DNA from: Phycisphaerales bacterium Planc_01
GTDB lineage: Bacteria > Planctomycetota > Phycisphaerae > Sedimentisphaerales > Anaerobacaceae
Length of the DNA: 64,000 bases
Direction: 5' to 3'
Assembly: GCA_001603075.1 (NCBI GenBank)
Contig: LVBB01000158.1
Location: forward strand, 24,548 to 88,547
Both the position numbers and the translations under genes were made by a program. The stretch's first letter is position 1, and every line of letters starts with the position of its first letter. This document shows positions 23,019 to 32,402 of the stretch, in pieces. The notes under the pieces were generated by a model. The model was not told the origin of the DNA. It saw only the letters and a program-made list of their open reading frames with translations, and did not search any database.

Positions 23019-23774
23019 ATGGCGGCGAACTCCAAGATCGAATGGACACAGTGCACCTGGAACCCCGTGACGGGCTGCACCAAGATCAGTTCAGGTTGCC
23101 TGAACTGCTATGCGGAGCGCATGGCCCGTCGGCTCCAGGCGATGGGCCAGCCGAACTACCGCAACGGTTTTCGCGTCACCCTCCATCCTCATATGCTGGA
23201 GATGCCGCTGCACTGGCGGCAGCCTCGTACCGTCTTCGTCAACTCGATGAGCGACCTCTTCCACGAAGACGTACCGCTGGAGTTCATTCAGCAGATTTTC
23301 GACGTCATGCGTCGAATGCCCCAGCACCGTTTCCAGATCCTGACCAAGCGCTCCGGGAGACTCTCGCAGCTTGCCACTGACCTGCCCTGGGCTGAGAACA
23401 TTTGGATGGGTGTCACCGTCGAGAGCAGTGACTATATCGCGCGCATCCATGACCTGCGAGAGACGGATGCCGCTATCAAATTCATCTCTTTCGAGCCACT
23501 GCTCGGATCGATCACCAGATGCGACCTTGGCGGGATCGATTGGGTCATCGTCGGCGGCGAGTCGGGCCCCGCGGCACGACCGATGGATCGCCAATGGGTC
23601 GTCGATATCCGGGACCGGTGCCTGACTGCAAACGTCCCGTTCTTCTTCAAACAGTGGGGCGGCGTCAACAAGAAGCGAAACGGACGAAGCCTCGATAACA
23701 TCACGTGGAACGAGCTGCCAGATGCGATCACGCGGAGGGAATCAGATTATGCATCAATTGGATCCACCGGATGA
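23019..23774 (+). CDS. DUF5131 (phage Gp37/Gp68) family protein
   Basis: 251 residues behind AAGGG. It begins [39 protein letters not shown], with the family hallmark I-E-W-T-x-x-T-W-N-P and the three-cysteine cluster C-x6-C-x2-C-Y-A. It continues with S-D-L-F-H-E-D-V-P and [10 protein letters not shown]-x-A-R-P. The fold is related to radical SAM TIM barrels, and the cysteines could hold a cluster. The last 26 bases overlap the tcmP-like gene. These pairs are mobile and found in phages and accessory regions; the reaction is not known. Confidence 0.9.
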
Positions 23775-24567
23775 CGATGGGCTCTACATCCCGTCTGTGA
23801 AAGAGCACTCGAAAGCCAAGCACTGGTTTCTCAGCCGGTACATTGACGCGTTCACCACGTCCATGAAAGGCAAGTGGTCGAGCCTTCATTACATCGACCT
23901 TTTCGCGGGCGCGGGAATTGAACGGCTGAGTGAAACGGGTGCACTCGATTGGGGCTCGCCCCTGATAGCGGCACAGGCACGTTATCCATTTGCCGGATTA
24001 CATCTATGTGAGAAGAACAGGCGCAAATACGAGGCCTTGATACAGCGATTCCATCGACTCGACAGTGACGCCCAGGTACTGCGAGGTGACGCAAACAAGA
24101 GGATCGACGAGATTGTACGCACCGTCCCCTCAAGGACATTGTCTCTGGCGTTCCTCGATCCCTACGGGCTTCACCTGGAGTTCGAGACGATCACGAAGCT
24201 TTCCGGCATTCGTGCTGACCTGATCATCTTCTTCCCCGATCATCTGGATGCGCTGAGGAATTGGGAGAAGCACTATTTGCGGAATCCTGATTCGAATCTC
24301 GACCGCTGTCTTGGCAGCGGGGCCGATTGGCGGCAGATCCTGGGCAGCACACCCCAAGATCACTTGGCCGAGGCGCTACGCAACCTGTATGTCCAACAAA
24401 TCCGGTCGCTCGGATACACGGAATTCCGGTTCCAGCGCATCAGCAGTAAGGGACATCCTCTCTACGTCCTCTTGTTGTGTTCAAGGAGTAGGATCGCAGC
24501 CAAGCTATGGAGTGGGATTTCGGCGAAGGACCGTAACGGCCAACGAATCCTCCCCTTCGGGGAGTGA
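23749..24567 (+). CDS. tcmP: Three-Cys-motif partner protein (TcmP)
   Basis: 272 residues from the ATG at 23749, 9 bases after GGAGGGA. It has the family pattern: [12 protein letters not shown] near the start, then Y-I-D-L-F-A-G-A-G, which resembles a Rossmann methyltransferase SAM-binding loop, G-S-P-L-I-A-A, and L-A-F-L-D-P-Y-G-L. TcmP is by definition the partner of three-Cys Gp37/68 proteins, and here it overlaps that gene by 26 bases. A nucleic acid or protein modification role is plausible but unproved. Confidence 0.9.
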
Positions 24568-26262: not shown

Positions 26263-26907
26263 TCAAAGCGACTTGATCCGGATGTTCCGGTACCAGGCCT
26301 CGCTGGGCGGGCCGCCATGGATCTGGAGCCCGATGATGCCGGTCTGCGGGATCGCATCGTCCGACTCGGTGTAATCGACCGTCTGCAAGCCGTTGACCCA
26401 GAGCTGAATCCGCTTGCCTTCGCAGCGAATGATGTAGTCGTTCCAGTCGCCGGCGCGAACTACCTCGGCGATCTTGGCCGGCTCCGGGCAGGCCAACACC
26501 TTGTTGCGGCGTGACTCATCGTACAGGCAGCCCCAGTACTGCTGGCCCATATCGGCTTGATAGCCGCTGACCTCATAGTGGTCGGGCACGCGTTGACTGC
26601 GAATCTGGACGCCGGCATTGGCGTTCTCGCCGAGGAGTCTGAATTGCAGCCGCAACTCGAAATCGTCGTACGATGCGAGCGTGCACAGAAACTCATTGTG
26701 GGCGACGTTTGCGGTCAGCGTCCCACCGACGATGGCGCCGTCCTCGATGCGGAAGACCTCTTGCGAGCCTTCCCAGCCTGCGAAGGTCTTCCCATCGAAC
26801 AGGGCGACGAAGCCGACCTGTCTCAATGTCCCGTCTGAGCCGGTGCAGCCGGCCATCATCATCAGCGACAGCATTACGGCAACAGTCAGTCCTTTGTCCT
26901 TCAGCAC
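26263..26907 (-). CDS. DUF1080 (3-keto-disaccharide hydrolase-like) lipoprotein
   Basis: The start is placed at GTG 26907, 6 bases after AAGGAGA. The ATG at 26922, which overlaps the FtsK stop, has no ribosome binding site and would contain that site inside its own coding sequence. A lipoprotein signal ends in M-M-A-G-C. The DUF1080 concanavalin-like fold follows: F-V-A-L-F-D-G-K-T-F-A-G-W-E-G, A-N-A-G-V-Q-I-R-S-Q, E-V-S-G-Y-Q-A-D-M-G and G-I-I-G-L-Q-I-H-G-G-P-P-S-E. The family binds or cleaves sugar derivatives in planctomycetes. About 214 residues. It follows the FtsK gene closely, but its link to that system is doubtful. Confidence 0.85.
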   Translation of the reverse strand: MLKDKGLTVAVMLSLMMMAGCTGSDGTLRQVGFVALFDGKTFAGWEGSQEVFRIEDGAIVGGTLTANVAHNEFLCTLASYDDFELRLQFRLLGENANAGVQIRSQRVPDHYEVSGYQADMGQQYWGCLYDESRRNKVLACPEPAKIAEVVRAGDWNDYIIRCEGKRIQLWVNGLQTVDYTESDDAIPQTGIIGLQIHGGPPSEAWYRNIRIKSL

Positions 26908-26918
26908 AGTTCTCTCCT

Positions 26919-29900
26919 TCATTGATGGGTAGGATTGCCCGCCAGTTGTCTGGCGACATGAGCGAGCCAGTCATCGGTCAGTGCCGCGTAGGGGCGGAAT
27001 TTCTCCAGGCCGCCTTGTTCTTCGCTGTAGAGCAAAGCGCGATGGAAGCCGAGCTGGTTGGCGATGGGCGAATCGATCAGGGTGCTCGAATCCGAGGCGC
27101 TCATCTGGAACAGGATGCGATGGTCGAACTCGCGGATGGTCTGGCGATCGAACGTTCGCTCCAGCGTGCCGAGCGTATCGGCCCAGGTGACGACATGGAT
27201 GCCGACGGCGGCTCCTTCGCGCAGAAGGCCGGCAAACTGCACCTCCGGGCGCGGCGCCACTTCATCGCCCATCGAGAACCCGAAGGCGTCTTCGTTGCGT
27301 CGCAGCATGCGATATCGCTGCAGGCCGTAGATGAGCAGGACCACCGTTGCCGCATCATTCTGATCGGCCTGCACGCGCCGGTCCGCCTCCCGACTCAGTT
27401 CGCCAATGACGGCGGGGACATCGTTCCAGGCGACAATCCGGCAGGCGTGCGGCAGGCCCGAGGCCACGCGCTCGAACGTTCCGGCGCGGGGCGAGTCGGG
27501 CGGGCTGCCGTCGAGAACCACGAATTCGAGCGCCGATGGACCGCGGGACGGAAGCTGGCTTGCCAGGCTGACCATCGCGGCGGTCATCAGATTCATCGCC
27601 ACCTCGTCGCGCTGGCCGACCATCAGGACGTTGCCTCCGCTCTGGCGACGGAGCACCACCGCCGTCGGCTCCTTGATCGTGACGGGCGAGCCCAGCCAGA
27701 TCTTCGGGGCGGGCAGGGGCGAATCATGATTCGCCCCTACGCAGGCGGCCAATTGGCGGTTCTCGCGGATGTCGGCCGCGACGTTGCCTTCGAAGACGAT
27801 CATGGGCTCGCCCGGCTTGAAACCGCGCGCCGCGATCCGGCTCAGGTACGAATCGCGAACCGAATCGCTCAGCCATGCCACCTGGAAGGGGCTGTTGCCT
27901 GCAACGGCGCCGCCGGAGTCGTTGTAGATGGCCTCGCCCGGTCGCGACAGCAGGCGGGCGGCCGTGTTCTCGTCGTCGAGCACGAGCTGCGAATCGACCT
28001 CCGAGCATTGCAGCGCGATCCGCACCGCCATCTGGCCCATCGTGCTGCGGGCCAGCCCGAAGGCGCCGCCCAGCGTCTGCGAGCCGAGCACCACGTGGAT
28101 GCCGAACGCGCGGCCCTGGCGGACGAGCTGCTCCAGCAGGACGATGGCGTCCTGGGCGAGCTTGTCGTCTTCGGAGAAGAACACCTGGAACTCGTCCACG
28201 ATGAGCACCGTGCGGGGCATGGTCTTTCCGGTGGCGCTGCGATAGGCGGCGATGTCCTGCACGCCGGCGGCGCGGAAGAGGTTGCCTCGGTGGGCCATTT
28301 CGGCGTCGAGCCGCTGGAGGATGCTGAGTCCGAACTCACGATCGCTCTCGATGGCGACGGCCCGGGCGTGCGGCAGGCGGTTCGTGACATAGGTCTTGAA
28401 CTCGACGCCCTGTTTGAAGTCGATCAGGTACAGCTCGATCTCGTCGGGCCCGTACCACAGCGCCAGGTTGGTCACCATGACGTGCAGCAGAGTGGATTTG
28501 CCTGAGCCGGTCTTGCCGGCGATCAAGGTGTGCTGGGCGACACCGTGGCCCAGGCGGAAGCGTTGCAGCCGTGTCGCGCCGGTTCGTCCCAGGGGAACGC
28601 TCAGCTCGCGCGCGCTGTCGAGCGACCAGAGCTGCTCTTCGGTCGGTGCGATCGTCTGGAAGGGCACCTCGACGCGAGCGGAGCTGGCGCCGGCCTTGCC
28701 GATGGCGTGCATGAGGTTGGTCAGCACGCTCTCGGAAGGGGGTTTGTCCGGGGTCAGCGGGAACCGCTTCAGAATGGGGTCGCGCCAGACGAATCGGCCC
28801 TTGTCGTAGATGAGGTGGATGCTGCCGGCGCTGATGTCCTCGATGTCGATTCCGCTGGGCAGGTCCTGTCGGGCGTCGTAGGCGATCAACGTGTGGACGC
28901 CGCAACGCGGGCCGCTGTGGATGATGCTGCTCAGACGCCGGGCCGATTCCTCGTTGAAGTTCACCGGGAAGTCGGCGATGACGAGAAACCGATACGGCTC
29001 AGCCAGCTCGCCCGCCTGTTCGTTGTACTGCTCGATCGTCTCGAATTCGTTGCGGAGGTACTTCTGGATCACGTTCTCCATGTGACCGGTCAGGTCCTCC
29101 AACTGCTGTCGGATCTGAGCGGCTTCGGTCCAGATGCGTCCGCCCACGAGCGATTCGAGGTAGTCGCCGGCGTGCATGAAGCCCGCGAAGCTCTCCCCCA
29201 GGCCCACCGGATCGAAGATGGTAAAGCGGACCCGGCCCGGCGGAAGCGAGGTGAACACGCGCACCATGGTCGCACGCAGGGTCTCGATGGCCTCGTCTCG
29301 TCCTTCTCGCTGCGATTGGAGCAGCATCGAGCAGTGTCGGGGGAACTCCAGGACGGCCGGAATCTCCACGGGTGCGGCGGTGTCCAGTGTTTCGGCCGCA
29401 CGGGCCCGAACCGATTCCGACAGCGGCGCCAGATCCAGGTGAAGCGTACCGAAACGGACGATGCCCATGTCCTTTGAAACCGGCGCATCCGAAAGCGTCG
29501 GGGACGGATCGAATTCCGACGGACATCGCGATTGCAGTTCGCAGGCCCTGCTCAGCAGCGTTCGAAGGCAGGCAAGTCCCTCGTCCCATCGGCGTTCGAG
29601 GTGTTGCCGCGACGTCTCGTATCGGTTGCGGCATTCCGCCATCTGGTCGTCGTACTGCTGCTGAATCTCCGCCATCTTTCGGCGGCATTCCTCCTCCAGC
29701 GTCGACTGCTGTTGCTCGTATTCCTGCCGGGCCTGTTCCAGGGCCTCGTCCCGCTCTCTTTGGAGTTCGTCCAGCGTCTCTTGGCGGCGGTGCTCGATCT
29801 CGTTGATCGAGGTGTTGCGCTGCTTGGAGATGCCGGCTTTGGCGATCTCGAACATCTCGCGGGCCCGTTTGAGTTCCGCGTCCTTCTTCTCGACCGAGGT

Positions 29901-30848
29901 GCGCAGCTCGGCCTCGACATCCTCCAACGTGGATCGATATCGCCGCTGCATCGCGTCCCGAGCGCCGGCCATCGCCTCGTGGAAGGCGGCGTACGTCCGT
30001 CGCACCTGCGACTTGGCCTTCTGCCACAGGATTCGTTCTGCGAAGCCGGCCACGATCAAGGCGAGCCCGGCGGCGATCGGATACGTCACCTTTGCCAATG
30101 GCAGCCCGGGGACTCTGAGTGCGTATGGAATCGTCAGCAGGATGAGGACCACGGCCACCGCGCCTGCCGCCAACAGCACGGGTCGCGCGCCGACGAATGC
30201 CTGGGCGGTCCACAGGTGCCTCAGTGTCATAAGGTGCTGTTCGGCCAGAGCCTGCTGTGAGGGGTAATCGCCGTCCGGAGGCGGAGTCCTCGGTTCAACG
30301 GCCTCGATCTTGTGCTGACGATAGAGCCGCAGGAGCCCTGCCGCCTGCCCGGCGAGCGTGTCGAGGTACAGGCGGGCGTTGGCCGCTGTCGATTCCGCTT
30401 CCTGGCGTCGCTGCTCACTTCTGGCCATGGCGCCTTCGGCCACGAACTCGGCAACCATGACGCGGTCCTGGTATTCCTTCTCCGCTTTCTGCTCCAGTTC
30501 GACGGCGATCTGGGTGACCCTTTTGCGCCGGTGTTGCATCTCGACCTTGATCTCGCCAAACCGTTTGTCGTGATCGGTGCGAATCCTCGCGATGCGGCCG
30601 TCATAGCGGTCCTGGATCTCTTTGCTCTGGGTCTGCCGGTGCAGCTCGACGCGACCCTTGTCGGTCTCGAACCGATCCTGCGCCTTGTCCCTGGCGGTCC
30701 CGTAATCCGATTCGATCTTCGATTCGACGGGTCCGACTGTCTCGGCAGACAAATGGATCGCCTCGGCCAGCGCCCGGCGCTGAAGGTCGGTGTAATTTTC
30801 GCCGGGTGCAGCCGGGCTGCGAAGATAGGCTTCCAATTCAGCGTTCAT
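26919..30848 (-). CDS. FtsK/SpoIIIE-type ATPase with coiled coils and central membrane hairpin
   Basis: About 1309 residues from the ATG at 30848, which overlaps the previous stop (ATGA). Residues 1-180 are a charged coiled coil, two hydrophobic segments follow at ~222-246 and ~252-272, then a second coiled coil to ~440. The C-terminal 850 residues hold FtsK-like domains: a degenerate first one (V-R-F-T-I-F-D-P-V-G-L-G), an active one with G-K-T-G-S-G-K-S-T (near 785) and V-L-I-V-D-E-F (near 878), and a third, degenerate one around G-G-N-V-L-M-V-G-Q (near 1075). Three ATPase modules recall EssC/EccC of type VII secretion, but the N-terminal half is different. A GGGCGAAT palindrome inside the gene encodes G-A-N-H-D-S-P-L between the second and third modules. 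Confidence 0.85.
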   Translation of the reverse strand: MNAELEAYLRSPAAPGENYTDLQRRALAEAIHLSAETVGPVESKIESDYGTARDKAQDRFETDKGRVELHRQTQSKEIQDRYDGRIARIRTDHDKRFGEIKVEMQHRRKRVTQIAVELEQKAEKEYQDRVMVAEFVAEGAMARSEQRRQEAESTAANARLYLDTLAGQAAGLLRLYRQHKIEAVEPRTPPPDGDYPSQQALAEQHLMTLRHLWTAQAFVGARPVLLAAGAVAVVLILLTIPYALRVPGLPLAKVTYPIAAGLALIVAGFAERILWQKAKSQVRRTYAAFHEAMAGARDAMQRRYRSTLEDVEAELRTSVEKKDAELKRAREMFEIAKAGISKQRNTSINEIEHRRQETLDELQRERDEALEQARQEYEQQQSTLEEECRRKMAEIQQQYDDQMAECRNRYETSRQHLERRWDEGLACLRTLLSRACELQSRCPSEFDPSPTLSDAPVSKDMGIVRFGTLHLDLAPLSESVRARAAETLDTAAPVEIPAVLEFPRHCSMLLQSQREGRDEAIETLRATMVRVFTSLPPGRVRFTIFDPVGLGESFAGFMHAGDYLESLVGGRIWTEAAQIRQQLEDLTGHMENVIQKYLRNEFETIEQYNEQAGELAEPYRFLVIADFPVNFNEESARRLSSIIHSGPRCGVHTLIAYDARQDLPSGIDIEDISAGSIHLIYDKGRFVWRDPILKRFPLTPDKPPSESVLTNLMHAIGKAGASSARVEVPFQTIAPTEEQLWSLDSARELSVPLGRTGATRLQRFRLGHGVAQHTLIAGKTGSGKSTLLHVMVTNLALWYGPDEIELYLIDFKQGVEFKTYVTNRLPHARAVAIESDREFGLSILQRLDAEMAHRGNLFRAAGVQDIAAYRSATGKTMPRTVLIVDEFQVFFSEDDKLAQDAIVLLEQLVRQGRAFGIHVVLGSQTLGGAFGLARSTMGQMAVRIALQCSEVDSQLVLDDENTAARLLSRPGEAIYNDSGGAVAGNSPFQVAWLSDSVRDSYLSRIAARGFKPGEPMIVFEGNVAADIRENRQLAACVGANHDSPLPAPKIWLGSPVTIKEPTAVVLRRQSGGNVLMVGQRDEVAMNLMTAAMVSLASQLPSRGPSALEFVVLDGSPPDSPRAGTFERVASGLPHACRIVAWNDVPAVIGELSREADRRVQADQNDAATVVLLIYGLQRYRMLRRNEDAFGFSMGDEVAPRPEVQFAGLLREGAAVGIHVVTWADTLGTLERTFDRQTIREFDHRILFQMSASDSSTLIDSPIANQLGFHRALLYSEEQGGLEKFRPYAALTDDWLAHVARQLAGNPTHQ
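27717..27736. repeat. GGGCGAAT palindrome, intragenic copy 2
   Basis: GGGCGAATCATGATTCGCCC is a perfect 20-base palindrome followed by CTAC. It is inside the FtsK-type gene and read on the minus strand as A-N-H-D-S-P. Confidence 0.85.
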
Positions 30849-31078
30849 AGGCCGGATTCCGAACTGCTCCTGCAATCGTGTCGAGCCCCTTCGAGGGCGC
30901 TGCTCATCCGCTCCATCGCGAGAACGGCCGCACGAATGCTCGCCTCCAGAGGCGCCATGTACCTCTGCTCGAAATGTAGGGCGTTCTCATCGCGCCAATT
31001 CTCTCTGGTCTGTTGCCAGTCGGCCAGCATCTTCTTGCCGGCCAGCACCAGTTTGGCGCGGCCTTCGATGGCGCTCAT
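30845..31078 (-). CDS. Small helical protein, WXG100-like (second)
   Basis: 77 residues from the ATG at 31078 behind CAGGAGAA; the longer frame upstream overlaps the neighbouring gene. The product (MSAIEGRAKLVLAGKKM...) is all-helical in appearance, with a central W-x-x-x-R-E-N-W-R-D-E-N-A-x-x-F turn that resembles the W-x-G/W-x-D bend of WXG100 proteins. No signal peptide. It is translationally coupled to the FtsK gene. Family membership is suggested by size, the turn and the context, not proved. Confidence 0.65.
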   Translation of the reverse strand: MSAIEGRAKLVLAGKKMLADWQQTRENWRDENALHFEQRYMAPLEASIRAAVLAMERMSSALEGARHDCRSSSESGL

Positions 31079-31097
31079 CTGAGAATTCTCCTGAAAC

Positions 31098-32120
31098 TCA
31101 TCTCTGCCGTCCCGACGGTACAGGGGTCTGTGACAACACGCTGTCATTCCGGTCGAAGACGGTCGTCGTCCCTTTTCGCCGGTCGATCACCACCAGCGAT
31201 CCTGCCGGCAGGCTCAAGACGCTCTGCCATTGTGCGGCGGCGCGCAACAGGTCTGCCACACGGATGGCGATGTGCCCTTTCGATTCCAATTCACCGCTGC
31301 CGATGAACCAGCCGGAACCGACATGGTGGCCCGCTGTCCGAACGAGAAAGACCACATCGGGCTTGCCTTCAACGCGAGTCACCAGGACCCGATCGTCCGG
31401 TACGGGGGCCGCTTCATCGTCCGGATGGGCATCCGGATTGGCCCACAGGTCAGGCAGGGCGATGTCGGATATCCATTCGGGTGGTTCCGACGCGGCAGGC
31501 GCCTCGGCCCACGCCTCCGGCGCCGGCACGTTGTCTCGCAGCTTCTTCGATGCGTCCCGCAGGTCCGGCTCCGGCTCCGGCCGCAAGACGCTCTGAAGTG
31601 CGGTCTTCTCGATGTCCGCCGGTGTCTCGGGCGGCGCCAACGCGATATAGTCTTCCAGCGAGTCGATCATCTTGTCCAGTCGGGCGCGGGCGTTCGGGAT
31701 ATCGGCGTCGATCGCACTGACCAGGCCCTGAACGCCGCCGCGGTAGTCCGACTGCAACTTCTCGATCTGCAGAATCCACGAGCGGGTCTGGGTCAGCTTG
31801 GATTCGGCCTCGCGCAGTCGCCGTTCCGCGATCGCCAGCGCCTTACGCTCCTCGACGGCCGAGCTGGTCGTTCCGGACAGGGCCCGGTCCAGGACCTGCT
31901 TCTGTTTGAGGGCCAGCTTGGCCTGAACGGCCCGTTCGCGACAGACGCGAACCTGTTCGGTCCAGTACCGCCTGCGGTCCTCGGTCAGCCAGGCCAGGGT
32001 CCGCTGGATGTCGGTGGCCACCTCGTCCAGCGCCACCGCCGCCGTGTCCGAAAACGTGGCGAGCGAAGCCTTCAGAAGCTTCAGCAGGGCAACGGAATTG
32101 ACTCTGGCATACTGGCTCAT
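31098..32120 (-). CDS. Coiled-coil protein of the FtsK/WXG locus
   Basis: 340 residues, no signal peptide or membrane segment. Residues ~1-170 are a long helical region rich in Glu/Arg/Lys/Ala with heptad character, followed by an acidic/proline linker (~185-245). The C-terminal domain of about 90 residues is mostly beta: V-L-V-T-R-V-E-G-K-P-D-V-V-F-L-V-R, G-W-F-I-G, S-L-V-V-I-D-R-R-K-G-T-T-T-V-F-D. I do not recognise the family. Its place between two WXG-like genes and before the FtsK ATPase makes it a likely structural or chaperone-like partner. The ribosome binding site is weak (AAGAG). Confidence 0.7.
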   Translation of the reverse strand: MSQYARVNSVALLKLLKASLATFSDTAAVALDEVATDIQRTLAWLTEDRRRYWTEQVRVCRERAVQAKLALKQKQVLDRALSGTTSSAVEERKALAIAERRLREAESKLTQTRSWILQIEKLQSDYRGGVQGLVSAIDADIPNARARLDKMIDSLEDYIALAPPETPADIEKTALQSVLRPEPEPDLRDASKKLRDNVPAPEAWAEAPAASEPPEWISDIALPDLWANPDAHPDDEAAPVPDDRVLVTRVEGKPDVVFLVRTAGHHVGSGWFIGSGELESKGHIAIRVADLLRAAAQWQSVLSLPAGSLVVIDRRKGTTTVFDRNDSVLSQTPVPSGRQR

Positions 32121-32129
32121 CGATCGCTC

Positions 32130-32402
32130 TTATCGCTGCTGGAGGTAGTCCTCGATGTGGCGGGCCTTCTTCATCAGAAACGAGGCATGTTGGGTCGATG
32201 CTTCGAGAAAGCGACTCAATGCCTTGACCGTCTGTTCGAATTCCTGTGTGAACCGCCGCTGCTCCTGGTCCATCCAGCTCTTTTCCAGCCCGTGTAACCG
32301 CGTCTGCAACCCGCCCATCAGGGCCTCCAGGTCGGAGTTGAAGCGGCTCAAATCGCGTGCGAACCGCCGCAATTCGGCTGGGTCAACGTTGGCTTTGGCC
32401 AT
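32130..32402 (-). CDS. WXG100-like small helical protein
   Basis: 90 residues behind CGGAGG. Two long helices are joined at L-E-K-S-W-M-D-Q-E-Q-R-R-F-x-Q-E-F-E, the W-x-D-x-x-x-x-x-F hairpin seen in WXG100 relatives. The length (about 100 residues) and lack of a signal peptide fit type VII secretion substrates. The C-terminal helix ends K-K-A-R-H-I-E-D-Y-L-Q-Q-R; no clear Y-x-x-x-D/E export signal beyond E-D-Y-L. First gene of the locus. Confidence 0.78.
   Translation of the reverse strand: MAKANVDPAELRRFARDLSRFNSDLEALMGGLQTRLHGLEKSWMDQEQRRFTQEFEQTVKALSRFLEASTQHASFLMKKARHIEDYLQQR

What the first reader, a model, noticed from the sequence alone, without database searches (positions are those of the whole stretch)
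26919..32402. Candidate type VII-secretion-like locus: two WXG-like proteins, a coiled-coil protein and a three-module FtsK ATPase
Seen: four tightly packed minus-strand genes (90, 340, 77 and about 1309 residues; ATGA overlap between the last two). The two small proteins have no signal peptide and a central W-x-D helical turn. The ATPase has one intact P-loop module between two degenerate ones. Known: EssC/EccC ATPases with WXG100 substrates define type VII secretion. Inference: this is a diverged system, because the ATPase has no FHA domains and carries a membrane hairpin between two long coiled coils, and no EccB/EsaA/EssB homologue is present. It could be a new secretion or DNA/peptide translocation machine of planctomycetes.
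Basis: partly seen in the sequence, partly recalled or inferred. Interest (0 to 1): 0.82.

Follow-up and report, generated by a model that had tools for sequence, protein, structure and literature searches.

The report
Membrane-anchored WXG100/FtsK module of planctomycetes
These four genes are a stripped-down relative of the type VII protein-export machines of tuberculosis and staph bacteria; it was flagged in 2012 as occurring in planctomycetes, and here it proves to be a membrane-anchored, single-copy chromosomal version spread across much of that phylum, with no toxin attached and no known job.

Summary
A 90-aa WXG100 protein, a 340-aa coiled-coil protein, a 77-aa WXG100-like protein and a 1309-aa FtsK/EccC-like ATPase form a tight minus-strand operon. 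[quoted passage not shown]

The unit is real and conserved. In 62 of 64 independent loci with enough contig, all four genes stand in this order. Across 392 Planctomycetota genomes the WXG and ATPase genes co-occur almost perfectly (59 both, 1 and 3 single, 329 neither), even where the operon has broken up.

It is not a classical T7SSa or T7SSb. No YukD or EssB homologue accompanies it, the turn is W-x-D rather than W-x-G, and the C-terminal signal is incomplete. It belongs to a kind already named: [quoted passage not shown] (Zhang 2012, planctomycetes listed). Relatives are H. pylori HP0062/HP0066 and the soluble version in CoCoNuT defence operons.

New here: the membrane hairpin, largely vertical single-copy inheritance (described as "mobile"), the constant CC and second WXG-like partners, and no toxin domain. 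Export of the WXG pair with the CC rod is the best guess, unproven.

The parts
32130..32402 (-). 90-aa WXG100 protein (W-x-D-Q-E turn); the most conserved gene of the unit
   Evidence: PF06013 33.8 bits, cut-off 27.3; profile matches solved HP0062 E=1.8e-12 and EsxB E=3.6e-9; dN about 0 at dS 0.34-0.42 between congeners; single copy in 60 of 60 positive genomes
31098..32120 (-). 340-aa coiled-coil (CC) protein
   Evidence: Same position in every intact locus; single copy in 14 of 16 genomes tested, a second hit to the C-terminal domain only in one, none found in one
31641..32093 (-). CC residues 10-160: long antiparallel two-helix hairpin, the part common to all family members
   Evidence: AlphaFold2, pLDDT mostly 92-98 apart from the turn; no significant Foldseek match in the PDB
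31173..31397 (-). CC residues 242-316: Imm33-like domain, only in the minority of long family members
   Evidence: PF24719 E=7e-4 for the window protein, up to 1.4e-14 in long relatives; alpha/beta in the model
30845..31078 (-). 77-aa WXG100-like partner (SML; invariant W21, W28-x-D30, F36)
   Evidence: Alignments A2 and A7; 7 of 20 members hit PF06013, best 1.3e-6; hhalign to the WXG family E=7e-6, 84%
26919..30848 (-). 1309-aa EccC/EssC-like FtsK-family ATPase
   Evidence: PF01580 103 bits; EccCa domain 115 bits, below the equivalog cut-off of 509; Foldseek best match EccC 4nh0 E=3.6e-33
30204..30791 (-). ATPase N-terminal coiled coil, residues about 20-215
   Evidence: Composition, 34% E/K/R/Q and few P/G; inference from sequence, not folded
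30033..30191 (-). ATPase membrane hairpin, residues about 220-272
   Evidence: Kyte-Doolittle up to 2.5; TM-like segment at the same place in 61 of 63 full-length relatives; absent from the plasmid relatives
29529..30011 (-). ATPase second coiled coil, residues about 280-440
   Evidence: 45% E/K/R/Q, 2% P+G
28737..29369 (-). ATPase module 1 (degenerate; no P-loop, Walker B replaced by ADFP)
   Evidence: RecA-like in the model; residues; VIA-align also places it on the EccC5 DUF, Z 15-16
27867..28604 (-). ATPase module 2 (active-looking); P-loop GKTGSGKS at 28494-28517, Walker B LIVDEFQ
   Evidence: the only P-loop in 63 of 63 relatives; closest by sequence to EccC D1
26982..27704 (-). ATPase module 3 (degenerate), EccC/EssC D3-like fold
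   Evidence: Model matches EccC D3 6jd5 Z 21.4 and 6j17 Z 21.4, and EssC D3 6tv1 Z 17.4

Best explanation
This is a stand-alone, membrane-anchored WXG100/EccC-EssC-like module. Shown: the four genes, their homology, the single active-looking ATPase module, the membrane hairpin and their obligate co-inheritance. Inferred: the ATPase forms a hexamer at the cytoplasmic membrane, held by its hairpin and two coiled-coil stalks. The WXG and WXG-like proteins form a helical-bundle heterodimer, like EsxA-EsxB. That pair docks on a degenerate module (probably module 3, which has the EccC D3 fold) and on the rod-like hairpin of the CC protein, releasing the autoinhibited middle module. ATP hydrolysis then threads the WXG pair, with or without the CC rod, across the inner membrane. 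In plasmid relatives the CC slot can carry a nuclease toxin. In planctomycetes it carries no toxin, so the module would serve a constant housekeeping or envelope function rather than killing.
For: Curated WXG100 match; HP0062 and EsxB profile matches; SML is WXG100-like. EccC is the best ATPase match by sequence and fold, aligned over D1-D3. One P-loop in 63 of 63 and a TM segment in 61 of 63. Four-gene order in 62 of 64; phylum co-occurrence 59/1/3/329, Fisher p = 3e-65; co-retention in 15 of 15 genomes tested, including those with dispersed genes. In a Helicobacter plasmid relative the CC slot carries a WHH/colicin-DNase domain followed by an SMI1/KNR4 protein, between a WXG and a small protein, which is the architecture of an exported toxin. 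Extreme purifying selection on WXG.
Against: No secretion data exist. The complete C-terminal WXG100 signal (HxxxD/ExxhxxxH, PMC3935865) is not met in the alignments. No recurrent envelope or outer-membrane partner is encoded nearby although these are diderm bacteria, and no toxin-bearing copies of the WXG or CC family were found. Soluble relatives without the hairpin exist (and PMC11090510), so the ancestral job need not be export. The complex itself was not modelled.
Confidence: 0.5

Rival explanations
1. A non-secretory membrane or cytosolic machine: the WXG pair is a regulatory ligand or adaptor that switches the ATPase, which pumps or remodels something else (DNA, nascent protein, envelope component) on the inner face of the membrane.
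For: The WXG protein is almost invariant and single copy, unlike effectors. Soluble relatives sit in defence-type or stress operons with Hsp70/GrpE, TerD and TerY-P-like genes. Module 2 is also very close to the DNA motor FtsK (Z about 30). No envelope partners were found.
Against: By sequence the ATPase is closer to EccC/EssC than to FtsK, and WXG100 proteins are established EccC/EssC substrates. No DNA-binding gamma domain was identified.
Confidence: 0.28
2. A conflict or defence cassette: like its CoCoNuT and TerY-P plasmid relatives it delivers or controls an effector, here an effector that acts through the CC protein or is encoded elsewhere.
For: The CC slot carries WHH/colicin-DNase plus SMI1 in Helicobacter sp. 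NHP19-012. Bell 2024 predicts defensive secretion for soluble homologues. The window CC protein has an Imm33-like domain.
Against: Most planctomycete CC proteins end after the coiled coil (median about 200 aa). No mobile-element or defence context recurs, the WXG family was not found in viral contigs, and the pattern is largely vertical.
Confidence: 0.12
3. A true T7SS whose remaining components (EccB/D-like, EssA/B, EsaA, YukD functions) are encoded elsewhere in the genome and are too diverged to see.
For: T7SSc-j of Gram-positives show that accessory sets vary freely around a constant ATPase and WXG100 (PMC11217815).
Against: YukD is absent over its cut-off in 15 of 16 genomes with a working control; EssB (YukC) in 16 of 16. 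The EccB search had no working control, so it is inconclusive.
Confidence: 0.1

Closest known systems
Solo-WXG / YueA-like three-FtsK-domain 'mobile T7SS' (Zhang et al. 2012, PMC3482391, Table 1 footnote 6)
   Same: WXG protein with a distinct ATPase of three FtsK/HerA domains, only the middle one active; planctomycetes are listed.
   Different: Here chromosomal, single copy, largely vertically inherited and co-retained across the phylum rather than mobile; two further constant genes (CC and SML) and a membrane hairpin not mentioned there.
EssC-like/WXG100 extension of Type III-A CoCoNuTs (Bell et al. 2024, PMC11090510; e.g. probably Caballeronia pSBC2-5, L143)
   Same: Three-module ATPase with only D2 predicted active, N-terminal coiled coil, two WXG100-type proteins (one without WxG), a coiled-coil protein in the same operon.
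   Different: Theirs lacks TM helices, has a nuclease fused to the coiled coil and sits between TerY-like VWA genes; here there is a TM hairpin, no nuclease and no TerY-P.
Helicobacter pylori HP0062-HP0066 (PDB 3fx7, 2gts; PMC3397514, PMC4978471) and plasmid pNHP190012_1 (L145)
   Same: WXG100-like hairpin with W-R-D turn beside an FtsK-domain ATPase; best solved match of the WXG profile (E=1.8e-12).
   Different: Plasmid ATPase is shorter (823 aa) without a TM hairpin; the CC slot ends in a WHH/colicin-DNase domain with an SMI1 neighbour.
T7SSa (EccC/ESX) and T7SSb (EssC/Ess)
   Same: FtsK-family multi-module ATPase with N-terminal membrane hairpin and WXG100 partners; WXG pair as in ESX.
   Different: One intact module of three, coiled coils flanking the hairpin, no FHA, no YukD/EssB found, W-x-D instead of W-x-G, incomplete C-terminal signal.

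Membership tests
WXG100 superfamily (90-aa protein) | Passes curated Pfam PF06013 cut-off | tested here: met
   33.8 bits versus 27.3; 15 of 16 relatives' genomes over cut-off
WXG100 superfamily (90-aa protein) | Central W-x-G at the hairpin turn | tested here: not met
   W-x-D in all aligned members; HP0062, with W-R-D, is likewise only called ESAT-6-like (PMC3397514)
WXG100 superfamily (90-aa protein) | C-terminal HxxxD/ExxhxxxH pattern | tested here: not met
   Only A-xxx-E-xx-L before the protein ends; last hydrophobic position missing (alignments, pattern)
WXG100 superfamily (77-aa protein) | Passes PF06013 or shows homology to the WXG family | tested here: inconclusive
   P0002 itself has no hit, but 7 of 20 family members do and profile-profile E=7e-6 at 84%
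T7SSa / T7SSb | EccC/EssC-type FtsK ATPase, equivalog level | tested here: not met
   EccCa 115 bits versus cut-off 509, EssC 95 versus 778: homologous, not equivalog
T7SSa / T7SSb | YukD/EsaB ubiquitin-like component | tested here: not met
   Over cut-off in 1 of 16 genomes, window genome none; B. subtilis control rings
T7SSb | EssB (YukC) | tested here: not met
   0 of 16 over cut-off; B. subtilis control rings
T7SSa | EccB | tested here: inconclusive
   0 of 16 but no control rang
T7SSa / T7SSb | Secretion of the WXG100 protein | not testable with these tools
   Needs proteomics
Solo-WXG / three-FtsK-domain module (Zhang 2012; Bell 2024) | Three RecA/FtsK modules with only the middle one intact | tested here: met
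Solo-WXG / three-FtsK-domain module (Zhang 2012; Bell 2024) | WXG100-type protein encoded with the ATPase, without other T7SS parts | tested here: met
CoCoNuT-associated version (Bell 2024) | TerY-P / CnuB-C-H-E context, no TM helices, nuclease on the coiled coil | tested here: not met
   No such neighbours recur; TM hairpin in 61 of 63; no nuclease toxin domain recurs in the Pfam scan of CC members

The most novel reading that the evidence does not exclude
Planctomycetota possess a phylum-wide, vertically maintained, membrane-anchored WXG100 export machine that carries no toxin and uses only four proteins. It would be a minimal type VII-like exporter in diderm bacteria with a housekeeping or envelope role, from which the mobile, toxin-loaded versions differ by lacking the membrane hairpin and bearing an effector on the coiled-coil rod.
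Probability: 0.22. Interest if true: 0.75.

Novelty: new variant of a known kind. Interest (0 to 1): 0.48.

Why it matters
Type VII secretion is studied almost only in Gram-positive and mycolate bacteria, where many accessory membrane proteins obscure what the ATPase-WXG pair can do by itself. This module keeps the ATPase and WXG pair together with one coiled-coil rod, in Gram-negative-type cells, conserved across much of a phylum and free of toxins. It makes testable whether an EccC-like ATPase and a WXG pair are enough for translocation, and it supplies the chromosomal, membrane-anchored counterpart of the soluble modules now being found in defence islands.

Tried and rejected
Chance or artefact: rejected by conservation and dN/dS. 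Effector role of the WXG protein: unlikely, because it is nearly invariant. A conserved fifth gene: none found; the commonest other neighbour occurs in 14 loci. Operon always intact: rejected, several complete genomes of one family have the genes dispersed but keep the ATPase. Viral carriage: the WXG family was not found in viral contigs; ATPase hits in phage records cover at most half of the protein and match mostly the FtsK core. PADLOC hits (SspH, mad8) reflect the FtsK core only. Foldseek of the CC model gave no significant match. The EccB search had no positive control and is inconclusive. Literature searches for T7SS or WXG100 in Planctomycetes under those terms first returned nothing useful; the 2012 footnote was found only by a broader search. 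Anantharaman 2012, cited by Bell 2024 for the stand-alone operon, is not held. The C-terminus of the Rhodococcus L142 CC protein looks ParB-like by eye but has no Pfam match.

Full report
OBSERVATION. The four genes exist as described. On the minus strand, in transcription order: 32402-32130 (90 aa, here WXG), 32120-31098 (340 aa, CC), 31078-30845 (77 aa, SML) and 30848-26919 (1309 aa, ATPase). Gaps are 9 and 19 bp, then a 4-bp ATGA overlap. WXG passes Pfam's curated WXG100 cut-off at 33.8 bits versus 27.3; the ATPase matches FtsK_SpoIIIE at 103 bits. NCBIfam's closest models for the ATPase are EccCa (115 bits), EssC (95) and EccCb (95), all far below their equivalog cut-offs. The only P-loop is GKTGSGKS at residue 778, and the only membrane hairpin is at about 220-272, between two E/K/R/Q-rich segments.

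CONSERVATION. Relatives of the ATPase occur in 18 of 99 nearest genomes, and the other three genes sit beside it wherever the contig allows. A phylum sample of 392 genomes gave WXG in 60, always exactly one copy, with no match weaker than 2e-20, and the ATPase in 62. Both occur in 59 genomes; WXG only in one, which is 61% complete; ATPase only in three; neither in 329; Fisher p = 3e-65. A separate scan of named genomes returned more than 500 WXG relatives; the best 80 were taken. Of the 64 with more than 5.5 kb downstream, 62 have WXG-CC-SML-ATPase in that order. All 63 full-length ATPases have exactly one P-loop, and 61 have a TM-like segment in the same place. In several complete or near-complete genomes of one family the genes are scattered, yet all 15 tested genomes keep the ATPase and 15 of 16 keep the CC gene. 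Separation without loss argues for a real joint function.

SELECTION AND INHERITANCE. Between congeners WXG is identical in protein (dN about 0) at dS 0.34-0.42, while SML and CC change. A quick ATPase tree shows taxonomic orders strongly clustered: 11 label changes against 25.6 in shuffles. With MAG labels this is only indicative, but it fits mainly vertical inheritance with many losses. No viral contig carried the WXG family.

ANATOMY. AlphaFold2 of ATPase residues 425-1309 (32 sequences, mean pLDDT 84.5) shows three RecA-like modules. The best Foldseek match is EccC 4nh0, E=3.6e-33. VIA-align extends 4nh0 over 743 residues, although at 14.5 A rmsd because the inter-domain arrangement differs; module 2 alone matches FtsK and EccCb1 D2 at 2.3-2.7 A, and module 3 matches EccC and EssC D3 at Z 17-21. 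Module 1 also fits the EccC5 DUF region at Z 15-16, and module 2 is closest in sequence to EccC D1. The parse D1-D2-D3 or DUF-D1-D3 is therefore open. Walker motifs are intact only in module 2.

SMALL PROTEINS. The WXG profile hits solved HP0062 (1.8e-12) and EsxB (3.6e-9), both helical hairpins. SML is more diverged: P0002 has no Pfam hit, but 7 of 20 family members hit PF06013, and the two families match each other at E=7e-6. The two look like a WXG pair, which is inference. The full C-terminal signal pattern of WXG100 proteins (PMC3935865) is not met.

THE CC PROTEIN. Residues 10-160 are predicted as one long helical hairpin at high confidence, with no significant PDB match. Most family members stop soon after it (median about 200 aa). 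The long form seen here, shared by a minority, ends in an Imm33-like domain, E up to 1.4e-14.

RELATIVES ELSEWHERE. Plasmids carry soluble ATPases of this kind without the hairpin. On Caballeronia pSBC2-5 the neighbours are an annotated WXG100, VWA, CARF, PP2C and kinase genes. On a Rhodococcus plasmid the ATPase, a CC-like, a small W-R-D and a WXG protein occur in another order beside TerD genes. On a Helicobacter plasmid the CC slot ends in a WHH/colicin-DNase domain followed by an SMI1/KNR4 gene. This suggests that the CC hairpin is a carrier or docking rod on which toxins can be mounted.

LITERATURE. Zhang et al. [quoted passage not shown] Bell et al. 2024 (PMC11090510) describe the soluble form in CoCoNuTs and cite Anantharaman 2012 for stand-alone operons. 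HP0062/HP0066 is called a minimal T7SS set (PMC4978471). The T7SSa-j census covers Gram-positives only (PMC11217815), and the nomenclature paper advises the name WXG100 system where only the ATPase and WXG100 genes are shared (PMC2763215).

VERDICT. The kind is known; the locus is a variant of it with a membrane hairpin, a constant rod and second WXG-like partner, no toxin, and stable single-copy inheritance. Function by export is the likeliest reading (0.5), resting on homology only. A non-secretory membrane machine is the main rival (0.28).

Noticed in passing
window 26263-26922 (-): A DUF1080/3-keto-disaccharide hydrolase lipoprotein gene (PF06439, 2.4e-41) overlaps the ATPase stop by 4 bp, kept in two congeners; in G063 a family member lies just upstream of the WXG gene (L032). 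The family is large in planctomycetes, so this may be chance.
   Followed up: partly
window 23019-24567 (+): Two overlapping genes that by eye resemble a phage Gp37/Gp68-type radical-SAM-like protein and a three-Cys-motif partner protein, a pair often seen in mobile or defence regions.
   Followed up: no
L090 6611-9631 and 9618-12569 (G204): In one distant planctomycete the ATPase position holds two consecutive large ORFs of about 1000 aa instead of one, reminiscent of the EccCa/EccCb split; no CC match was found in that genome.
   Followed up: no
L075 (G344): Gene order differs (CC, SML, WXG, without the ATPase), the ATPase lying about 180 kb away on the same contig.
   Followed up: partly
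L145 7027-8438 (Helicobacter sp. NHP19-012 plasmid): The CC-slot protein carries a WHH/colicin-DNase nuclease domain and is followed by an SMI1/KNR4 protein: a toxin-immunity pair inside a WXG/FtsK module of an epsilonproteobacterium.
   Followed up: partly
L234 (G442:C2:132052-132282): One planctomycete genome has a clear YukD-family domain (57.9 bits) far from its WXG/ATPase operon.
   Followed up: no
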